Of a stretch of 45,816 bases of DNA, positions 3,579 to 43,701 are shown piece after piece. Numbering within the stretch: the stretch's first letter is position 1; every line of letters starts with the position of its first letter. The notes beneath the pieces were generated by a model that worked only from the letters and a program-made list of their open reading frames with translations, was not told the origin of the DNA and did no database searches. The stretch is from Bacteroidota bacterium (GTDB lineage Bacteria > Bacteroidota > Bacteroidia > B-17B0 > Aurantibacillaceae), in the NCBI GenBank assembly GCA_013697245.1, contig JACCXH010000041.1, forward strand, positions 1 to 45,816, written 5' to 3'. The translations under genes were made by a program, and so were the position numbers.

Positions 3579-3607
3579 TTGATAAAAATATTTAGACAGA
3601 ACACACT

Positions 3608-4555
3608 ATGAAAAAAACAAAAAAAATAGCGATAGTTGCAATTCTTTTCATGATTGTTACTACAGGTAAGGCGCAATACGATGCTCTATTTACGCAATAT
3701 ATGTTTAACGAGATGTTCATTAATCCAGCTTATGCCGGGAGTAAAGAAGCTATGAGCGCAACATTATTACACAGGCAGCAGTGGGTTAATTTTCCGGGTC
3801 GCCCAATAACAACCTCGTTTTCATTGCACGGACCATTGATGCAGAATAAGATGGGTTTAGGTCTTAGTGTTTTAAACGAATCAATTGGTGTGTTACAAAG
3901 GAATTTAGTTTATGTAAGTTATGCTTACAGGGTAAAAACCGGTGATAAAGGCCATTTAGCGTTTGGTTTAATGGGAGGTATTCATACTCAATTAAATAAA
4001 TTCTCAACTTTAAAAACCAATGATGACGGAACTGTTGATCCACAATTAGCACAAAACTCGCCAAATTTAATTTCTCCGAATTTTGGTGGAGGTATTTATT
4101 TTAATACCAAAACATTTTATACCGGTTTATCAATTCCAAGAATGGTAGATGACAGGATCGCCTTTAATCCAAACGGAACCAGCATACAAACTACTAAGAT
4201 CGATCCAACTAAATTTACTTTTTATTATACCATTGGTAACATGTTTACTTTATCAAGCGACCTGAAATTAAAAGGCCAGGCAATGATAAAAGCGGTTCAA
4301 AATGCGCCAATACAATACGACTTAAGCGCTAACTTTTTTATTAAAGAAAAAATTTGGGCAGGGGTTTCATACAGAAGCAATGCAGCGGTTGCAGCAATTG
4401 TTGGCATACAGGTAAGTCCACAATTCCTTGTGAGTTATTCTTATGATTATGGCATTAATGCCATTCAAAAATACTCGCAGGGATCGCATGAGATAGGAAT
4501 AAATTATTTATTCTCTTATAAAGGTAAAAAAGTTGTTACACCACGTTATTTCTAA
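3608..4555 (+). CDS. PorP/SprF family type IX secretion system membrane protein
   Basis: 315 residues with an N-terminal signal peptide (MKKTKKIAIVAILFM...GKAQ) and the family hallmark just after it: 'DALFTQYMFN', 'FINPAYAGS', then 'HRQQWVNFPGRP'. The rest is alternating beta strands with aromatic girdles, fitting an outer-membrane barrel. PorP/SprF proteins are cargo-partner components of the T9SS; in Flavobacterium johnsoniae, SprF is needed for surface display of SprB. The gene lies between a type B cargo (29 bp upstream) and an OmpA-family gene (21 bp downstream), so the three are probably co-transcribed and this protein probably serves that cargo. Family assignment is firm; the cargo pairing is inferred from position. 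Confidence 0.93.
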   Translation: MKKTKKIAIVAILFMIVTTGKAQYDALFTQYMFNEMFINPAYAGSKEAMSATLLHRQQWVNFPGRPITTSFSLHGPLMQNKMGLGLSVLNESIGVLQRNLVYVSYAYRVKTGDKGHLAFGLMGGIHTQLNKFSTLKTNDDGTVDPQLAQNSPNLISPNFGGGIYFNTKTFYTGLSIPRMVDDRIAFNPNGTSIQTTKIDPTKFTFYYTIGNMFTLSSDLKLKGQAMIKAVQNAPIQYDLSANFFIKEKIWAGVSYRSNAAVAAIVGIQVSPQFLVSYSYDYGINAIQKYSQGSHEIGINYLFSYKGKKVVTPRYF

Positions 4556-38820: not shown

Positions 38821-38954
38821 TTTAACCACATAGGTTAGAAGAAAGATTTTTATGCCTAGAGTAAAGCTTAGGCTTTTCTTCGCCTAAGGCGAAGAAACTA
38901 TGAGTGCTTTTTTGAAACTTTTGGTTTAATTTTTTATGTGTCTATGTGGTTAAA
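38821..38954. repeat. 134-bp inverted-repeat element (MITE/REP-like) at the 3' end of hldD
   Basis: Perfect 13-bp terminal inverted repeats, TTTAACCACATAG (38821-38833) and CTATGTGGTTAAA (38942-38954), enclose a non-coding interior. Inside is a near-perfect palindrome (38875-38897, 11-bp arms around one central base, core CTTCGCC/GGCGAAG) and a weaker GCCTA...TAGGC pair (38854-38858, 38869-38873). The right repeat overlaps the hldD stop codon (TAA at 38952-38950), so the element supplies the end of that gene. No target-site duplication is obvious, and no second copy is in the window. Confidence 0.6.
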
Positions 38955-39915
38955 AATAATTCCCTTTAATAAGGTAATTGGTAACATAGTCGTTTACCCC
39001 TTCCTCCAGACTGGTAAAATTTTTTGAATAACCGGCGTTTATTAATTTACTCATGTTGGCTTCGGTAAAATATTGGTATTTATCCCTAATATCAATCGGC
39101 GTATCAATAAACTCAATATTAGGCTCAATATTTAGGGCTTTAAATGTGGCATTGGCAAGATCTAAAAAGGTGCGGGCCTTACCGCTGCCTAAATTATAAA
39201 TACCATTTTTTACAATATTAGAATATAAGAACCAAATCACATTTACCACATCTTTTACATAGACAAAATCGCGTAATTGTCCGCCATCTGTATAATTAGG
39301 GTTATGCGAACGGAATAATTTTACTTTACCTGTATTATTTATCTGGTGAAAAGAATGGAAGATCACAGACGCCATTCTGCCTTTATGATATTCATTAGGG
39401 CCATACACATTAAAGAATTTTAGTCCGTACCAATTTGGCGGCGTTTGTTTTTGTTGTAAAGCCCATTTATCAAAATCGTTCTTGCTCTCGCCATAAAGGT
39501 TCAACGGTTTTAAAAGTGGGATCTTAGTTTCATCATCATCATAACCGTGTTCGCCCAAACCATAAGTAGCGGCCGACGAAGCATAGATCATAGAAATTTG
39601 GTTCTTCGCACAAATACTCCAAATAGCTTTGGTATAATTTAAATTAAGCTCATTTAAAATATGTACATCTTTTTCGGTAGTATCGGTTCTTGCACCAATG
39701 TGTATAACATGACTAACAATATTGTGATTCTTATCAAACCACTCAATAAAATGTTTACGTTCAATCTTTTGGTAAAAGGTCTTTAACGTATAGTTGGGCT
39801 GTTTTTCGCTTATCGAAAAATCATCCACCAATATCAAATTATTAACCCCTTCAGAGTTAAATTTTGAAATTATGCAACTACCAATAAACCCTGCCGAACC
39901 TGTAATAACGATCAT
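38950..39915 (-). CDS. hldD: ADP-L-glycero-D-manno-heptose 6-epimerase
   Basis: 321 residues, the usual length. The enzyme epimerises ADP-D-glycero-D-manno-heptose to the L-form for lipopolysaccharide inner core. The NAD(P)-binding Rossmann motif is 'GSAGFIGS' (G6, G9, G12). Family-specific 'HIGARTDTTE', 'YASSAATYG', the catalytic Y141-x3-K145 in 'NLYGESKND' and 'FNVYGPNEYHKGRMASV' all match HldD/RfaD. It belongs to envelope biogenesis and lies just upstream of the M1 peptidase on the same strand, separated by an inverted-repeat element whose end contributes the stop codon. Other heptose genes are not in the window. Confidence 0.93.
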   Translation of the reverse strand: MIVITGSAGFIGSCIISKFNSEGVNNLILVDDFSISEKQPNYTLKTFYQKIERKHFIEWFDKNHNIVSHVIHIGARTDTTEKDVHILNELNLNYTKAIWSICAKNQISMIYASSAATYGLGEHGYDDDETKIPLLKPLNLYGESKNDFDKWALQQKQTPPNWYGLKFFNVYGPNEYHKGRMASVIFHSFHQINNTGKVKLFRSHNPNYTDGGQLRDFVYVKDVVNVIWFLYSNIVKNGIYNLGSGKARTFLDLANATFKALNIEPNIEFIDTPIDIRDKYQYFTEANMSKLINAGYSKNFTSLEEGVNDYVTNYLIKGNYF

Positions 39916-39973
39916 AATTAGTTTTGTGATGTAAAGTTAATTAAAAATAATGAAAGAGAAATGCAACCATGAA

Positions 39974-40137
39974 TTGCTCCGGAGGAGCAAAATATTTACA
40001 GAAATAATTATTAGCGGTCGGCGTGCCGGAGGTACGCAACATTATTGTGATAATTTGATCTTTTGTTTCACACCTCCGGTGCGATATTTTGTGCGCTTAT
40101 ACGTGTTTTTAAAATGTTTGGCTCCTCCGGAGCCAAA
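39974..40137. repeat. Four-hairpin symmetric REP/BIME-like cluster
   Basis: The 318-bp gap between divergent hldD and the acyl-CoA synthetase gene holds four short hairpins with 3-nt loops and CTCC/GGAG-type stems. H1: TTGCTCC-GGA-GGAGCAA (39974-39990). H2: GCGTGCC-GGA-GGTACGC (40021-40037, one G-T pair). H3: CACC-TCC-GGTG (40071-40081). H4: TTTGGCTCC-TCC-GGAGCCAAA (40117-40137). H1 and H4 are inverted counterparts, as are H2 and H3, so the whole block is a large inverted repeat. I recall similar sequences between genes in other Bacteroidota genomes. No coding function; an apparent open frame here is the repeat in translation. Confidence 0.7.
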
Positions 40138-40233
40138 AAAAGTAAAATTTGTATCGGAATGGCAACAAAAATCCGGCGCCTCAAAAGATCTATTTTGTTA
40201 TTCGCTTAATTTTATAGAAATTAGAATTAAATT

Positions 40234-42009
40234 ATGGAGATAAAAAGAGTTTTTGATATTTTAGATACGCTTAAAAAAACCTCAACAAAAGAGGATATCT
40301 TAAGTGGTAAAGTAAATAAAAAGTGGGTAAAGTATAGCATTAGCGATTTTGTAAATAATGCCAATTATGTTAGCTCTGCGCTTTTACATTTGGGTTTACA
40401 AAGTGGCGATAACCTTGCTATCATGGCTAGTAACATGCCCGAATGGAATTTTGTAGATTATGGTTCGCAACAAGTGGCCATGCCATCGGCCCCTATTTTT
40501 CCAACCATTAGTGCCGAAGACCTTAAATATATTTTAAACCACAGCCAGGCTAAAATTATTTTTATTTCAGAAAGATCTACTTATCAAAAACTGGCAAGTA
40601 TGGAGGGCGAACTGCCATATTTAAAATATGTGTTCAGTTTTCACCCAATAGAAGGCGTTAAAAATTTTTCTGAATTTTTAGAATTAGGTAAACAAAATCT
40701 TGACCTGGATAAAATAGAACAAATTAAAAACAAAGTTACCGAAAACGACCTGCTTACTATATTATACACATCTGGCACAACCGGCCAGCCAAAAGGTGTG
40801 ATGATCTCGCATAAAAATTTGGTAAGCAATGTTATGATCTGTAAAGACATTGCTCCTTTTGTGGACAGGTGGCGTGCTTTAAGTTTTTTACCGCTCAATC
40901 ATGTTTACGAACGTTTTTTAAATACACTTTATTTATACCATAATGTAAGTATTTATTATGCCGAAAGTTTTGAGACCATTGGCGATAATTGCCGCGAATT
41001 GCATCCCGAAATTTTTGTGGCCGTGCCGCGTGTGTTGGAGCGTGTGTTGGAAAAGATCATTTCGGCCGGCGAAAAATTAAGCGGCTTTAAAAAAATGATT
41101 TTTGACTGGAGCGTACGGTTGGCCGAAAAATATGAATTAGATGGCGCCAACGGACCCTGGTTCGAATTTCAACGAAAAATTTGCGACACCCTGGTCTATT
41201 CAAAATGGCGCGCAGCAGTTGGTGGAAAAGTGGAAGTGATCGTTAGTGGCGGTGCAGCTCTTAATCCGCGCATTGAAAGAATTTTTGCCTGCGCCAATTT
41301 AAAATTACTGCAGGGCTATGGTTTAACCGAAACCTGTGTTGTGGTTGCCGTTAACCGTTTAGGAAAAGGCAATATGATGTTTGGCACCGTGGGTAAAGTG
41401 GTAGAGAACTCAGAAGTAAAAATAGCAGAAGAAGATGGCGAGATCTTAATGAAAGGGCCAAGCCTGATGTTGGGATATTATAAAAACCCCGAAGCAACGG
41501 CAGAAGCAATTGATCCTCAAGGTTGGTTCCATACCGGTGATATTGGAAAATTTATTGATGGCAAATTTTTAAAAATTACCGATCGTAAAAAAGAGATCTT
41601 TAAAAGCAGTGCAGGCAAATACATTTCGCCGGTAGCTATTGAAAATAAATTAAAAGAGTGTAAGTATATTGAACATTGCATGGTAATTGGTGAAGGGCAA
41701 AAATATGCTTCGGCTTTAATTATACCATCTATGTTAAATTTAAAAGAGCATTTTAATAAAAATAATATTGAGTGGCCGGGTAATGATGCCGTGCATGCGC
41801 ATGACGAGGTTAAAAAAATAATAAACGCTCATATTAAAGCCATTAATGCAACATTGGCGCCTTACGAACAATTAAAGCGTACACAATTAATTAAAGGTAA
41901 CTGGACAGTTGAGTCGGGAGAAATAACGCCAAAACTTAGCCTGAAACGGAAAATAATCGCCGAGAAAAACAAAGAGGTAATAGTTAAGATCTTTGGGGAA
42001 GGGGATTAG
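40234..42009 (+). CDS. Long-chain fatty acid-CoA ligase (AMP-forming)
   Basis: 591 residues, typical of bacterial long-chain acyl-CoA synthetases. The AMP-binding P-loop is 'YTSGTTGQPKGVMISHKN' (178-195). 'LQGYGLTETC', 'GWFHTGDIG' and 'ITDRKKEIFKSSAGKYISP' are the acyl-CoA synthetase A- and C-terminal signatures, and the catalytic lysine probably lies in 'LSLKRK' near the C-terminus. It activates fatty acids to acyl-CoA at the membrane for lipid synthesis or beta-oxidation; the crotonase at 18164-18952 could act downstream. Transcribed alone from the REP-containing gap, with no clear promoter visible. The gene at 42056 follows after 46 bp. Confidence 0.93.
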   Translation: MEIKRVFDILDTLKKTSTKEDILSGKVNKKWVKYSISDFVNNANYVSSALLHLGLQSGDNLAIMASNMPEWNFVDYGSQQVAMPSAPIFPTISAEDLKYILNHSQAKIIFISERSTYQKLASMEGELPYLKYVFSFHPIEGVKNFSEFLELGKQNLDLDKIEQIKNKVTENDLLTILYTSGTTGQPKGVMISHKNLVSNVMICKDIAPFVDRWRALSFLPLNHVYERFLNTLYLYHNVSIYYAESFETIGDNCRELHPEIFVAVPRVLERVLEKIISAGEKLSGFKKMIFDWSVRLAEKYELDGANGPWFEFQRKICDTLVYSKWRAAVGGKVEVIVSGGAALNPRIERIFACANLKLLQGYGLTETCVVVAVNRLGKGNMMFGTVGKVVENSEVKIAEEDGEILMKGPSLMLGYYKNPEATAEAIDPQGWFHTGDIGKFIDGKFLKITDRKKEIFKSSAGKYISPVAIENKLKECKYIEHCMVIGEGQKYASALIIPSMLNLKEHFNKNNIEWPGNDAVHAHDEVKKIINAHIKAINATLAPYEQLKRTQLIKGNWTVESGEITPKLSLKRKIIAEKNKEVIVKIFGEGD

Positions 42010-42055: not shown

Positions 42056-42553
42056 ATGACAGATTTTGAGAAAATAGCGCATTTAATTCGTTTTGGACTT
42101 CCCTTAAAAAAAATAAGTCATGAAACAATAATTGAATGGACTGATAAGAAAATAAATGATGAAAGATTTTCTGATATTTTCCTGACAAATAATTCAAATC
42201 AAATCATTGAGTCCTTTTCAAACAAAGTTGTTTGGGATTTTAATAATGTCGAAATAAGAAATCTTATTTTAAGTTATTACAATGAATACTTGAAAAACAA
42301 TGAAGATAAATGGTTTAAAATCGAAGAAGAGCTCTCCAATTATTTTGAATTATTAGAATACAATAACAGTAATGAAGCCGGTAATGACTTTCTATACATT
42401 CTCGCTGATGATATTTCTCTCCGAAAAGATGGTTATGGAAATTTTGTTGCCAATATGCCGGATTATTTAATAGAAAATTTGTCTGGTCACTCTAATTATA
42501 ATAAATTAAATGAACTTCTTACAAAAAATGGTCTCGTAGGATATAATATTTAA
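42056..42553 (+). CDS. Hypothetical soluble protein
   Basis: 165 residues, family not recognised. It lacks a signal peptide and membrane segments, is strongly acidic and Asn-rich, and mostly helical ('TDFEKIAHLIRFGLPLKKIS', 'RNLILSYYNEYLKNNEDKWF', 'IEEELSNYFELLEYNN'). The C-terminal part has 'DGYGNFVANMPDYLIENLSG'. Its AT content is higher than that of the acyl-CoA synthetase beside it, consistent with acquisition. Size and charge resemble immunity proteins of polymorphic toxins, but no toxin gene is adjacent, so that is only a thought. It stands alone between a 46-bp gap and a 77-bp gap before the convergent SPASM gene. Confidence 0.55.
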   Translation: MTDFEKIAHLIRFGLPLKKISHETIIEWTDKKINDERFSDIFLTNNSNQIIESFSNKVVWDFNNVEIRNLILSYYNEYLKNNEDKWFKIEEELSNYFELLEYNNSNEAGNDFLYILADDISLRKDGYGNFVANMPDYLIENLSGHSNYNKLNELLTKNGLVGYNI

Positions 42554-42630
42554 TAATCCTCTGTGCAATCCGCGAAATCTGTGGCTTTTTATGCACTTCG
42601 ACTAGTACCTTATTCGTATTATATTAGTAA

Positions 42631-43701
42631 TTATTCGTAGATCTTAGTTCCTTCCGTACAATTGGTACAAATATCAATTTGATCTCTACTCTTTAATATA
42701 GAGCGACGAAAATTATTATACGACTCCGAGAACCAAATGCTCTCAAAGGTATCTTTTTCTAAATTACCTAATTTGTATTTGGCATCTTTATCAAAACAAC
42801 ATGGCACAATTTTACCGTCCCAGGTTATTACACAACCCTGCCACATACGCCAGCATTGATTGAGTAATTTGTTCTTAAGCTCATACTTTCCTGAATCACC
42901 TTTTTTGTAACGCGAATATTCTTCGAGGTCTGGAATAAGATCGTGCCCATTCTCAAAATCGTAGATCTGTGCCGTTTTTATCTTTACCTCATCCACCCCT
43001 AATTCTTTTCCTAATTTTTTTACTGCCTCAATTTGATGTTCGTTGGTTTTAAATACCACAAATTGCCAAACCACATGTGGCGAACTACTTTTTAAGAGTT
43101 TTTTTTGTTTTAAGATCTCTTTGGTGCCTTCTATCACTTTATCAAAATGTCCGCCAATGCGGTATTTCTCATAAACTTCCTGTGTAATGCCATCTACTGA
43201 AATAATAAGTTTATCCAGTTTACTCAAAATAGTTTGTTTGGCATTTTCTTCGGTTAAATAATGTGCATTGGTACTGGTTATTGTAAAAATATTGTTGTTG
43301 GAGGCAAAAGAAACCATTTTTAAAAAGTCGGGGTTCAAATAAGGTTCGCCCTGGAAATAAAAAGTAAGGCTATGTAAATGTTTTTTTGTCTGCAGAATGA
43401 TCTTTTCAAACAATTGGTTTTGCAACATACCGGTTGGGCGGGTAAATTCGCGCAAACCACTCGGGCATTGCGGACATCTTAAATTGCAGCTTGTAGTTGG
43501 TTCTATACTAATAAAGAATGGTAAGCCCATTTGAACGGGCTTATTAATCAAACGTGAGTAATAAAATCCAAAAGCGAGTTTAAAAAAGTTAAATGCTTTA
43601 TAAACGGATAGTTTTTTAAATATTTTAAGATAATAGCGTATCACAGCGTTTTGTAAAGATATGCTATTAACCGTAAATAGACAGTAGAATTTCGGCTGCA
43701 A
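42631..43701 (-). CDS. Radical SAM/SPASM domain protein
   Basis: 356 residues as drawn from a TTG at 43701; a GTG at 43644 (MIRYYLKIFKKL...) is an equally good start and no early ATG exists. The [4Fe-4S] motif is 'TTSCNLRCPQCPSG' (C72, C76, C79). 'FYFQGEPYLNP', 'TSTNAHYL' and 'LIISVDGITQEVYEKYRIGG' follow the radical SAM core. The C-terminal SPASM region has 'CWRMWQGCVITWDGKIVPCC' and 'DICTNCTEG', giving ligands for one or two auxiliary clusters. I recall close relatives throughout Bacteroidota, in envelope or glycan contexts. No short precursor peptide is visible nearby, so a peptide substrate is unproven. A 16-bp palindrome with 2-bp spacer lies upstream. Confidence 0.85.
   Translation of the reverse strand: MQPKFYCLFTVNSISLQNAVIRYYLKIFKKLSVYKAFNFFKLAFGFYYSRLINKPVQMGLPFFISIEPTTSCNLRCPQCPSGLREFTRPTGMLQNQLFEKIILQTKKHLHSLTFYFQGEPYLNPDFLKMVSFASNNNIFTITSTNAHYLTEENAKQTILSKLDKLIISVDGITQEVYEKYRIGGHFDKVIEGTKEILKQKKLLKSSSPHVVWQFVVFKTNEHQIEAVKKLGKELGVDEVKIKTAQIYDFENGHDLIPDLEEYSRYKKGDSGKYELKNKLLNQCWRMWQGCVITWDGKIVPCCFDKDAKYKLGNLEKDTFESIWFSESYNNFRRSILKSRDQIDICTNCTEGTKIYE

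What the first reader, a model, noticed from the sequence alone, without database searches (positions are those of the whole stretch)
39974..40137. Symmetric four-hairpin REP/BIME-like cluster in a divergent promoter region
Hairpins H1-H4 have 3-nt loops (GGA, GGA, TCC, TCC) and H1/H4, H2/H3 are inverted counterparts, giving a nested palindromic block of 164 bp. Compensating G-T pairs occur (H2 on +, H3 on -), hinting at selection for RNA or single-strand structure. Such repeats are often moved by REP-associated tyrosine transposases. Here the block occupies the promoter region of hldD and the acyl-CoA synthetase.
Basis: partly seen in the sequence, partly recalled or inferred. Interest (0 to 1): 0.5.

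Follow-up and report, generated by a model that had tools for sequence, protein, structure and literature searches.

The report
Transposase-less paired-hairpin element in Bacteroidota
The four hairpins look like the two ends of a small jumping-gene-like element that has no transposase of its own; the same ends frame an intact transposase gene elsewhere in this genome, and that type of transposase had been described as lacking such repeats.

Summary
In detail: four 3-nt-loop hairpins at 39974-40137, in the order <- <- -> ->, able to fold as one long hairpin. The unit is not the single hairpin but a dyad: two same-orientation hairpins ~50 nt apart, here with TGTT foot and TCC/TCT loop. The window holds two inverted, abutting dyads (39965-40051 -, 40054-40144 +). 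A covariance model finds 20 dyads in this genome (E<=0.01); all 23 at E<=1 lie outside ORFs. Dyads abut both ends of an intact Y1 transposase gene on C41 of this genome.

Of 82 transposase loci with the Y---Q--HH signature (subclass 1.2 of Quentin et al. 2018, "REP: no" there), 39 have a dyad within 150 nt; the nearest points outward in 28 of 29 (upstream) and 23 of 27 (downstream). So the block looks like such an element without its gene, a REPIN/MITE-like composite, probably mobilised in trans by IS200-type TnpA. Movement is inferred; one single-dyad insertion with empty orthologous sites is shown. "RAYT" in the strict sense is not met: proteins score as IS200, and the foot is not GTAG. At this locus hairpins are better conserved than linkers in three species. 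No promoter or terminator role is shown.

The parts
39965..40051 (-). Left hairpin dyad (H2 inner, H1 outer), read on the minus strand
   Evidence: Covariance model R1, 66.7 bits, E 1.5e-13 in own genome; this dyad is one of the 31 rows of the model
40054..40144 (+). Right hairpin dyad (H3 inner, H4 outer)
   Evidence: R1 75.4 bits, E 7.4e-16; also one of the model's rows
39974..39990 (-). H1, outer hairpin, loop TCC on minus strand, degenerate foot (ATATT)
40021..40037 (-). H2, inner hairpin, loop TCC on minus strand, foot TGTT, one A-C mismatch
40068..40084 (+). H3, inner hairpin, loop TCC, foot TGTT, one A-C mismatch
40117..40137 (+). H4, outer hairpin, loop TCC, foot TGTT overlapping the stem base
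38950..39915 (-). Flanking gene, ADP-glyceromanno-heptose 6-epimerase (hldD/rfaD type)
40234..42009 (+). Flanking gene, AMP-binding enzyme (acyl-CoA synthetase-like)

Best explanation
The block is a non-autonomous (transposase-less) composite of two inverted, abutting hairpin dyads, which are the end structures of a family of Y1 (HUH, IS200-type, subclass 1.2) transposase elements of Bacteroidia. The complete form is <-dyad - tnpA - dyad->; the window has <-dyad dyad->. Likely mechanism, inferred: TnpA made from an intact copy elsewhere in the genome (C41:42606-43070) recognises these hairpins in single-stranded DNA and cuts and rejoins strands near the foot, so that dyads and dyad pairs spread between genes. 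Shown: anatomy, copies, outward-facing association with tnpA, two-sided stem changes, and one dyad insertion with empty orthologous sites. Inferred: binding, cleavage and mobilisation by this TnpA. The window copy is old: it lies at the same place in three species.
For: Dyad = two same-orientation hairpins with centres 46-53 nt apart (39 collected); 31 aligned: 97.2% of 433 cells paired, 13 of 14 pairs changed on both sides, covariation 0.630 against 0.221 shuffled, 0 of 500. 20 dyads in own genome at E<=0.01, 23 at E<=1, 23 of 23 outside ORFs of >=100 aa. Intact tnpA C41:42606-43070 (ORF) lies between dyads 42514-42602 (-) and 43073-43162 (+). In 82 subclass-1.2 loci, 39 have a dyad within 150 nt, nearest one outward in 28/29 upstream and 23/27 downstream; 23/24 and 19/23 without the loci used for the model; 40 control loci gave 1 hit at E<=0.01. 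Hairpins 10.7 times denser near than >500 bp from the gene. TCC/TCT-loop loci cluster on the TnpA tree: 4 changes against 6.9 shuffled, 0 of 500. Dyad inserted in G021 and G019 and absent in G006, G000, G023.
Against: 43 of 82 subclass-1.2 loci have no dyad hit within 150 nt, and only 16 of 82 have a strict dyad of two perfect >=6-bp stems. Downstream 4 of 27 point the wrong way. Other hairpin labels (A, 4A) are not clustered on the tree (158 and 500 of 500 shuffles as low). The TGTT foot near transposases is confined to the TCC clade: L117, L066, L048, L121, L042. G043 has 42 dyads and no Y1 match; G006 and G040 also have dyads without one. No target-site rule or exact element ends could be defined; the one insertion is longer (~119 bp) than the dyad. 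Inner hairpins of the window copy are mismatched. No biochemical evidence.
Confidence: 0.74

Rival explanations
1. Of mobile origin, but this copy is now kept by the host as a cis element between two divergent genes (protein-binding cruciform, insulator or supercoiling site).
For: In three species with 80-83% identity in the neighbouring gene, hairpins are 65/68 and 64/68 identical to the window while linkers and gap are 75/94 and 71/94 (Fisher p 0.004 and 0.002).
Against: L072, sister of L070 in the gene tree, and L069 lack the block; H3 has lost a pair in the window; only three sequences; repair from other copies could also keep hairpins.
Confidence: 0.2
2. A structured RNA or transcription attenuator/terminator.
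For: The region folds well as RNA, z -4.13.
Against: No Rfam family at gathering score in ten sources; only a microRNA-precursor family, MIR8562, at E 0.11-0.12 in a permissive search of the region. No terminator-like site. The block lies upstream of both diverging genes. Almost no G-U among the changed pairs except at the outermost pair of helix 2 (the dyad finder disfavours G-U).
Confidence: 0.04
3. A MITE of a DDE transposase defined by its terminal inverted repeats.
For: Outer arms 22 nt, 91% complementary.
Against: Dyads also occur singly (L049, L038), abut Y1 genes in outward orientation, and TCC/TCT hairpins follow the TnpA tree. DDE transposases and target duplications were not searched for systematically.
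Confidence: 0.03

Closest known systems
REP / BIME / REPIN with TnpAREP (RAYT), 'REPtron'
   Same: Extragenic hairpins with a 5' foot, inverted pairs, copies dispersed in the genome, and a Y1 transposase gene flanked by them.
   Different: Foot TGTT, not GT[AG]G; TnpA is IS200-type with Y---Q--HH, not Y---NP; the unit is a same-orientation dyad with ~50-nt spacing; tens, not hundreds, of copies in this genome.
IS200/IS605 family, TnpA subclass 1.1 (IS608, ISDra2)
   Same: TnpA homologous to solved structures (2xm3_A E 9.1e-13; that these are IS608/ISDra2 transposases is partly recalled); subterminal hairpins at the ends.
   Different: Here the ends are inverted dyads abutting the ORF; in IS608 a single hairpin lies at each end in the same orientation (recalled).
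TnpA-Y1 subclass 1.2 of Quentin et al. 2018 (PMC6006769; passages and sections 12 and 18 read)
   Same: DH[IV]H, WQ, Y---Q--HH, ~150 aa, Bacteroidetes, low copy number.
   Different: The paper gives REP 'no' and generally no typical terminal structures; here 61 of 82 loci have GC-rich hairpins within 300 bp and 39 of 82 an adjacent dyad.
CGTC-tagged repeats (PMC3733652; passages read)
   Same: Palindromic intergenic repeats reported also in Bacteroidetes.
   Different: Tagged CGTC; the window hairpins carry TGTT.

Membership tests
REP/BIME (REPIN) | short GC-rich extragenic palindrome | tested here: met
   23 of 23 own dyads outside ORFs >=100 aa, against 53 of 840 random windows
REP/BIME (REPIN) | pairs in inverted orientation | tested here: met
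REP/BIME (REPIN) | high copy number (usually >100 per genome, PMC2817692 abstract start) | tested here: not met
   20 dyads at E<=0.01 in own genome; other hairpin classes not counted
REP/BIME (REPIN) | GT[AG]G foot | tested here: not met
   foot TGTT: 67 on the 5' side against 8 in the mirror place of 143 hairpins, partly loci chosen by similarity to the window
RAYT (TnpAREP) | profile over curated cut-off; Y---NP motif | tested here: not met
   RAYT scores 41.1, 33.5, 34.5 bits and none, against cut-off 80; Y motif YIKNQEEHH in L066
IS200/IS605 TnpA | profile over curated cut-off | tested here: met
   84.5, 80.1, 63.1, 59.3 bits against 55
TnpA-Y1 subclass 1.2 | Y---Q--HH, DH[IV]H, WQ | tested here: met
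   L066, L065, L067 in own genome; motif-based assignment, not the paper's own profiles
TnpA-Y1 subclass 1.2 | no associated REP-like hairpins (as reported) | tested here: not met
REPtron-like system | transposase cuts the repeats | not testable with these tools
   needs a biochemical assay

The most novel reading that the evidence does not exclude
Subclass 1.2 Y1 transposases are a further lineage, besides IS200 and RAYT, that keeps its own repeat system. Its unit is a hairpin dyad with ~50-nt spacing; dyads frame tnpA pointing outward, spread singly and as tnpA-less composites through Bacteroidia, co-diversify with their TnpA, and are in places kept by selection long after insertion.
Probability: 0.45. 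Interest if true: 0.65.

Novelty: new variant of a known kind. Interest (0 to 1): 0.52.

Why it matters
It gives a transposase subclass that was described as having neither IS properties nor repeats a defined set of candidate DNA substrates, with an architecture that can be tested in vitro. It accounts for a class of palindromic intergenic repeats in Bacteroidia. And because hairpins at one locus change more slowly than their linkers between species, the open question of why genomes keep REP-like repeats becomes testable in another phylum.

Tried and rejected
Structured RNA: no Rfam family at gathering score in ten sources; permissive search gave only MIR8562, E 0.11 and 0.12, one on each strand. 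Terminator: none; promoter-like sites 2 against 1.7 in shuffles. RAYT in the strict sense: rejected on profile cut-offs and Y motif. A pattern for converging inner hairpins found nothing in the genome. The pattern TGTT-N(1-8)-CCTCCGG gave 27 matches against 7 for its reversed control, but only 9 of the 27 lie in a hairpin by the scan, so the dyad model replaced it. Presence of dyads and of Y1 genes across 100 genomes is associated (36 of 39 against 38 of 61; Fisher p 0.0009; Spearman 0.50) but not corrected for kinship or genome size.

Rows dropped and limits. 115 Y1 loci went into the classifier: 21 gave no ORF with both motifs, 82 fell into the 1.2 bin, 9 into a bin Y---Q without HH (rough; some may be class 2) and 3 into class 2. 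The loci are most full-domain rows above 66 bits in the capped list, some weaker ones, and 16 low-scoring ones; L042 and L048 first came in by DNA similarity to the window but are also in that list. The tree used the 80 proteins of >=110 aa. Of 39 dyads, 31 were aligned; eight were left out (two each of L135 and L151, one each of L168, L175, L048, L155). The dyad finder favours paired stems, which biases the percentage paired upward. In one search only 43 candidates per genome were scored, so the highest counts (42 in G043, 39 in G057) are probably lower bounds, and the match list was cut. In one search, 5 of 19 relatives' loci were skipped for contig edges and 1 of 14 counted as inside an ORF (L216, the orthologue of the window block, a long ORF through the palindrome). 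In one search overlapping opposite-strand hits were reduced to the best.

Full report
What is there. The four hairpins exist at the stated coordinates. On the strand that carries the loop TCC, H2, H3 and H4 have TGTT 5' of or at the base of the stem, and H1 a degenerate form; H1 and H2 are read on the minus, H3 and H4 on the plus strand. Centres lie at 39982, 40029, 40076 and 40127, spaced 47, 47 and 51 nt. The region folds better than shuffled sequence as DNA and as RNA and can form one long hairpin.

Copies of the block. A second full-length copy, 72% identical, lies in the same genome at C6:55183-55342. Of 100 genomes searched (own included), 14 have a DNA match at E<=0.001; apart from the own genome, G021 and G006 have nearly the whole block, others one half or a hairpin. 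G021 and G006 are the records behind L068 and L070, as contig lengths and positions agree.

The unit is a dyad. The half-elements show two hairpins in one orientation with centres 46-53 nt apart (39 collected, 23 of them at 49 or 50). Thirty-one were aligned: foot TGTTT, first hairpin, variable linker ending near TTTTTAAAAnTGTTTG, second hairpin. Stems differ but pair: 97.2% of 433 cells, 13 of 14 pairs changed on both sides, covariation 0.630 against 0.221 in shuffles (0 of 500) and at most 0.136 when slid. The foot is oriented: TGTT on the 5' side in 67 and in the mirror place in 8 of 143 hairpins (many of these loci were chosen by similarity to the window). Among strong TCC/TCT-type hairpins within 400 bp of subclass-1.2 genes it is 12 and 0 of 30, or 9 and 0 of 26 without L042 and L048; all of these lie in one clade of transposases, so TGTT is a mark of that clade, not of the subclass.

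Copies of the dyad. The covariance model R1 finds 20 dyads at E<=0.01 in the own genome and at least one in 39 of 100 genomes; the highest counts, 42 and 39, meet the limit of 43 scored candidates. An own-genome search gives 23 at E<=1; 23 of 23 lie outside ORFs of 100 aa or more, whereas 787 of 840 random 90-nt windows lie inside. Back-to-back pairs (minus then plus, abutting or slightly overlapping) occur in the window, at C6, at C11 (two, one of them with a weak arm, E 0.006) and at C21 (second arm only E 0.45). Face-to-face pairs (plus then minus) lie at C37 and at C41:63571-63789, the last with a weak arm (E 0.07).

The transposase. The own genome has four Y1_Tnp matches. One, L066 (C41:42606-43070, 154 aa, DHVH, WQ, YIKNQEEHH), lies between dyads that point outward and end 3 and 2 nt from it (42514-42602 minus, 43073-43162 plus). 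L066, L065, L042 and L048 pass the NCBIfam IS200 cut-off and not the RAYT one. The nearest solved structures are annotated as transposases, ISHp608 among them. Y---Q--HH is the signature of subclass 1.2 in Quentin et al. 2018, for which that paper states REP 'no', low copy number and generally no typical terminal structures (passages, sections 12 and 18). My assignment rests on motifs, not on the paper's profiles, and its supplements were not read.

Is the association general? Of 115 Y1 loci examined, 82 fall into the 1.2 bin; 61 of 82 have a perfect GC-rich hairpin within 300 bp, 23 on both sides, 150 hairpins in all against 2.95 from dinucleotide shuffles. Over all 94 classified loci the density is 2.60 per kb near the gene and 0.24 beyond 500 bp; the distal parts are largely coding, so this compares in part intergenic with coding DNA. 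The other Y1 bins have hairpins too (6 of 9 and 2 of 3 loci), as expected for known kin. The distance between neighbouring hairpins near 1.2 genes peaks at 45-54 nt (80 pairs in two 5-nt bins, every other bin at most 14); with both stems perfect and >=6 bp, 16 of 82 loci have such a dyad. R1 finds a dyad within 150 nt of the gene in 39 of 82 loci, at both ends in 17; the nearest upstream points outward in 28 of 29 and the nearest downstream in 23 of 27; without loci that gave rows to the model, 23 of 24 and 19 of 23 (binomial p 3e-6 and 0.003). Many of these dyads end within a few bases of the ORF. Hits outside the TCC clade are mostly weaker, with other stems and loops. Forty control loci (24 of the own genome, 16 with low-scoring Y1 matches; 108 kb) gave one hit at E<=0.01 and one more at 0.045. 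On the TnpA tree the TCC/TCT label is clustered (4 changes against 6.9, 0 of 500), five of its seven loci in one supported clade of six that includes L066; the sixth, L133, also has two such hairpins. Labels A and 4A are not clustered.

Insertion. A lone dyad in G021 and G019 lies between two converging genes. In G006, G000 and G023 the flanks meet within two bases at that place; in G006 query bases 462-580 (119 bp) are missing; six more genomes lack the dyad in the alignment or have only short unrelated sequence (G007, G012, G005, G001, G004; others not aligned). Insertion is the simpler reading. The insert is longer than the dyad, and its exact ends are not known.

The window locus. The block is at the same place in the window, L068 and L070 and absent in L069 and L072; L071 has a different upstream region, and L073 and L074 are distant. 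L070 and L072 are sisters in the gene tree (94/96, not starred), so a loss, replacement or second gain occurred. The stretches next to both genes are conserved in carriers and non-carriers. Hairpins are 65/68 and 64/68 identical to L068 and L070, linkers and gap 75/94 and 71/94 (p 0.004 and 0.002). Hairpins seem to be kept, by host function or by repair from other copies; three sequences cannot decide.

Mechanism. By homology with IS608/ISDra2 and TnpAREP (Background of Quentin 2018, passages), TnpA should bind such hairpins in single-stranded DNA and cut near a tetranucleotide set by the foot. The tnpA-bearing form would be autonomous and the window block a derivative mobilised in trans. None of these steps was tested.

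Novelty. The paper searches (open-licence library only) listed no paper that describes repeats for subclass 1.2 or TGTT-foot hairpin dyads in Bacteroidota, as far as listings show. In PMC8266576 and PMC2817692 the word Bacteroid- does not occur; PMC3733652 reports CGTC-tagged repeats in Bacteroidetes (passages). Subscription journals are not covered.

Noticed in passing
L072 and L069, upstream of the acyl-CoA synthetase orthologue (about 3600-4000): Where the window has the hairpin block, these two relatives carry other palindromic sequences (GCCACGAAGACAC...TTAGTGGC in L072; GCCAC...GTGGC in L069), as if the same intergenic spot had received different elements.
   Followed up: no
Own genome C33:150581, C33:28933, C37:52506-52758, C41:63571-63789, C53:294784-295754 (L252-L258): A sister class of dyads with GTCCC-TAC/GTA-GGGAC hairpins and feet like TATTTCG, in part next to another intact subclass-1.2 transposase (L065).
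   Followed up: partly
G043: 42 dyads but no Y1_Tnp match; G006 and G040 also have dyads without one.
   Followed up: no
G042 C31, C16: Face-to-face dyad pairs (plus then minus) recur with near-identical scores, suggesting a recently multiplied composite of about 175 bp.
   Followed up: no
L117 (G009:C25): The transposase gene lies between two copies, 683 bp apart, of the same three-hairpin cluster.
   Followed up: partly
L107, L112, L115, L120: Transposases of another branch are flanked by very long hairpins (13-19 bp perfect stems, loops TTAA/TAAA).
   Followed up: no
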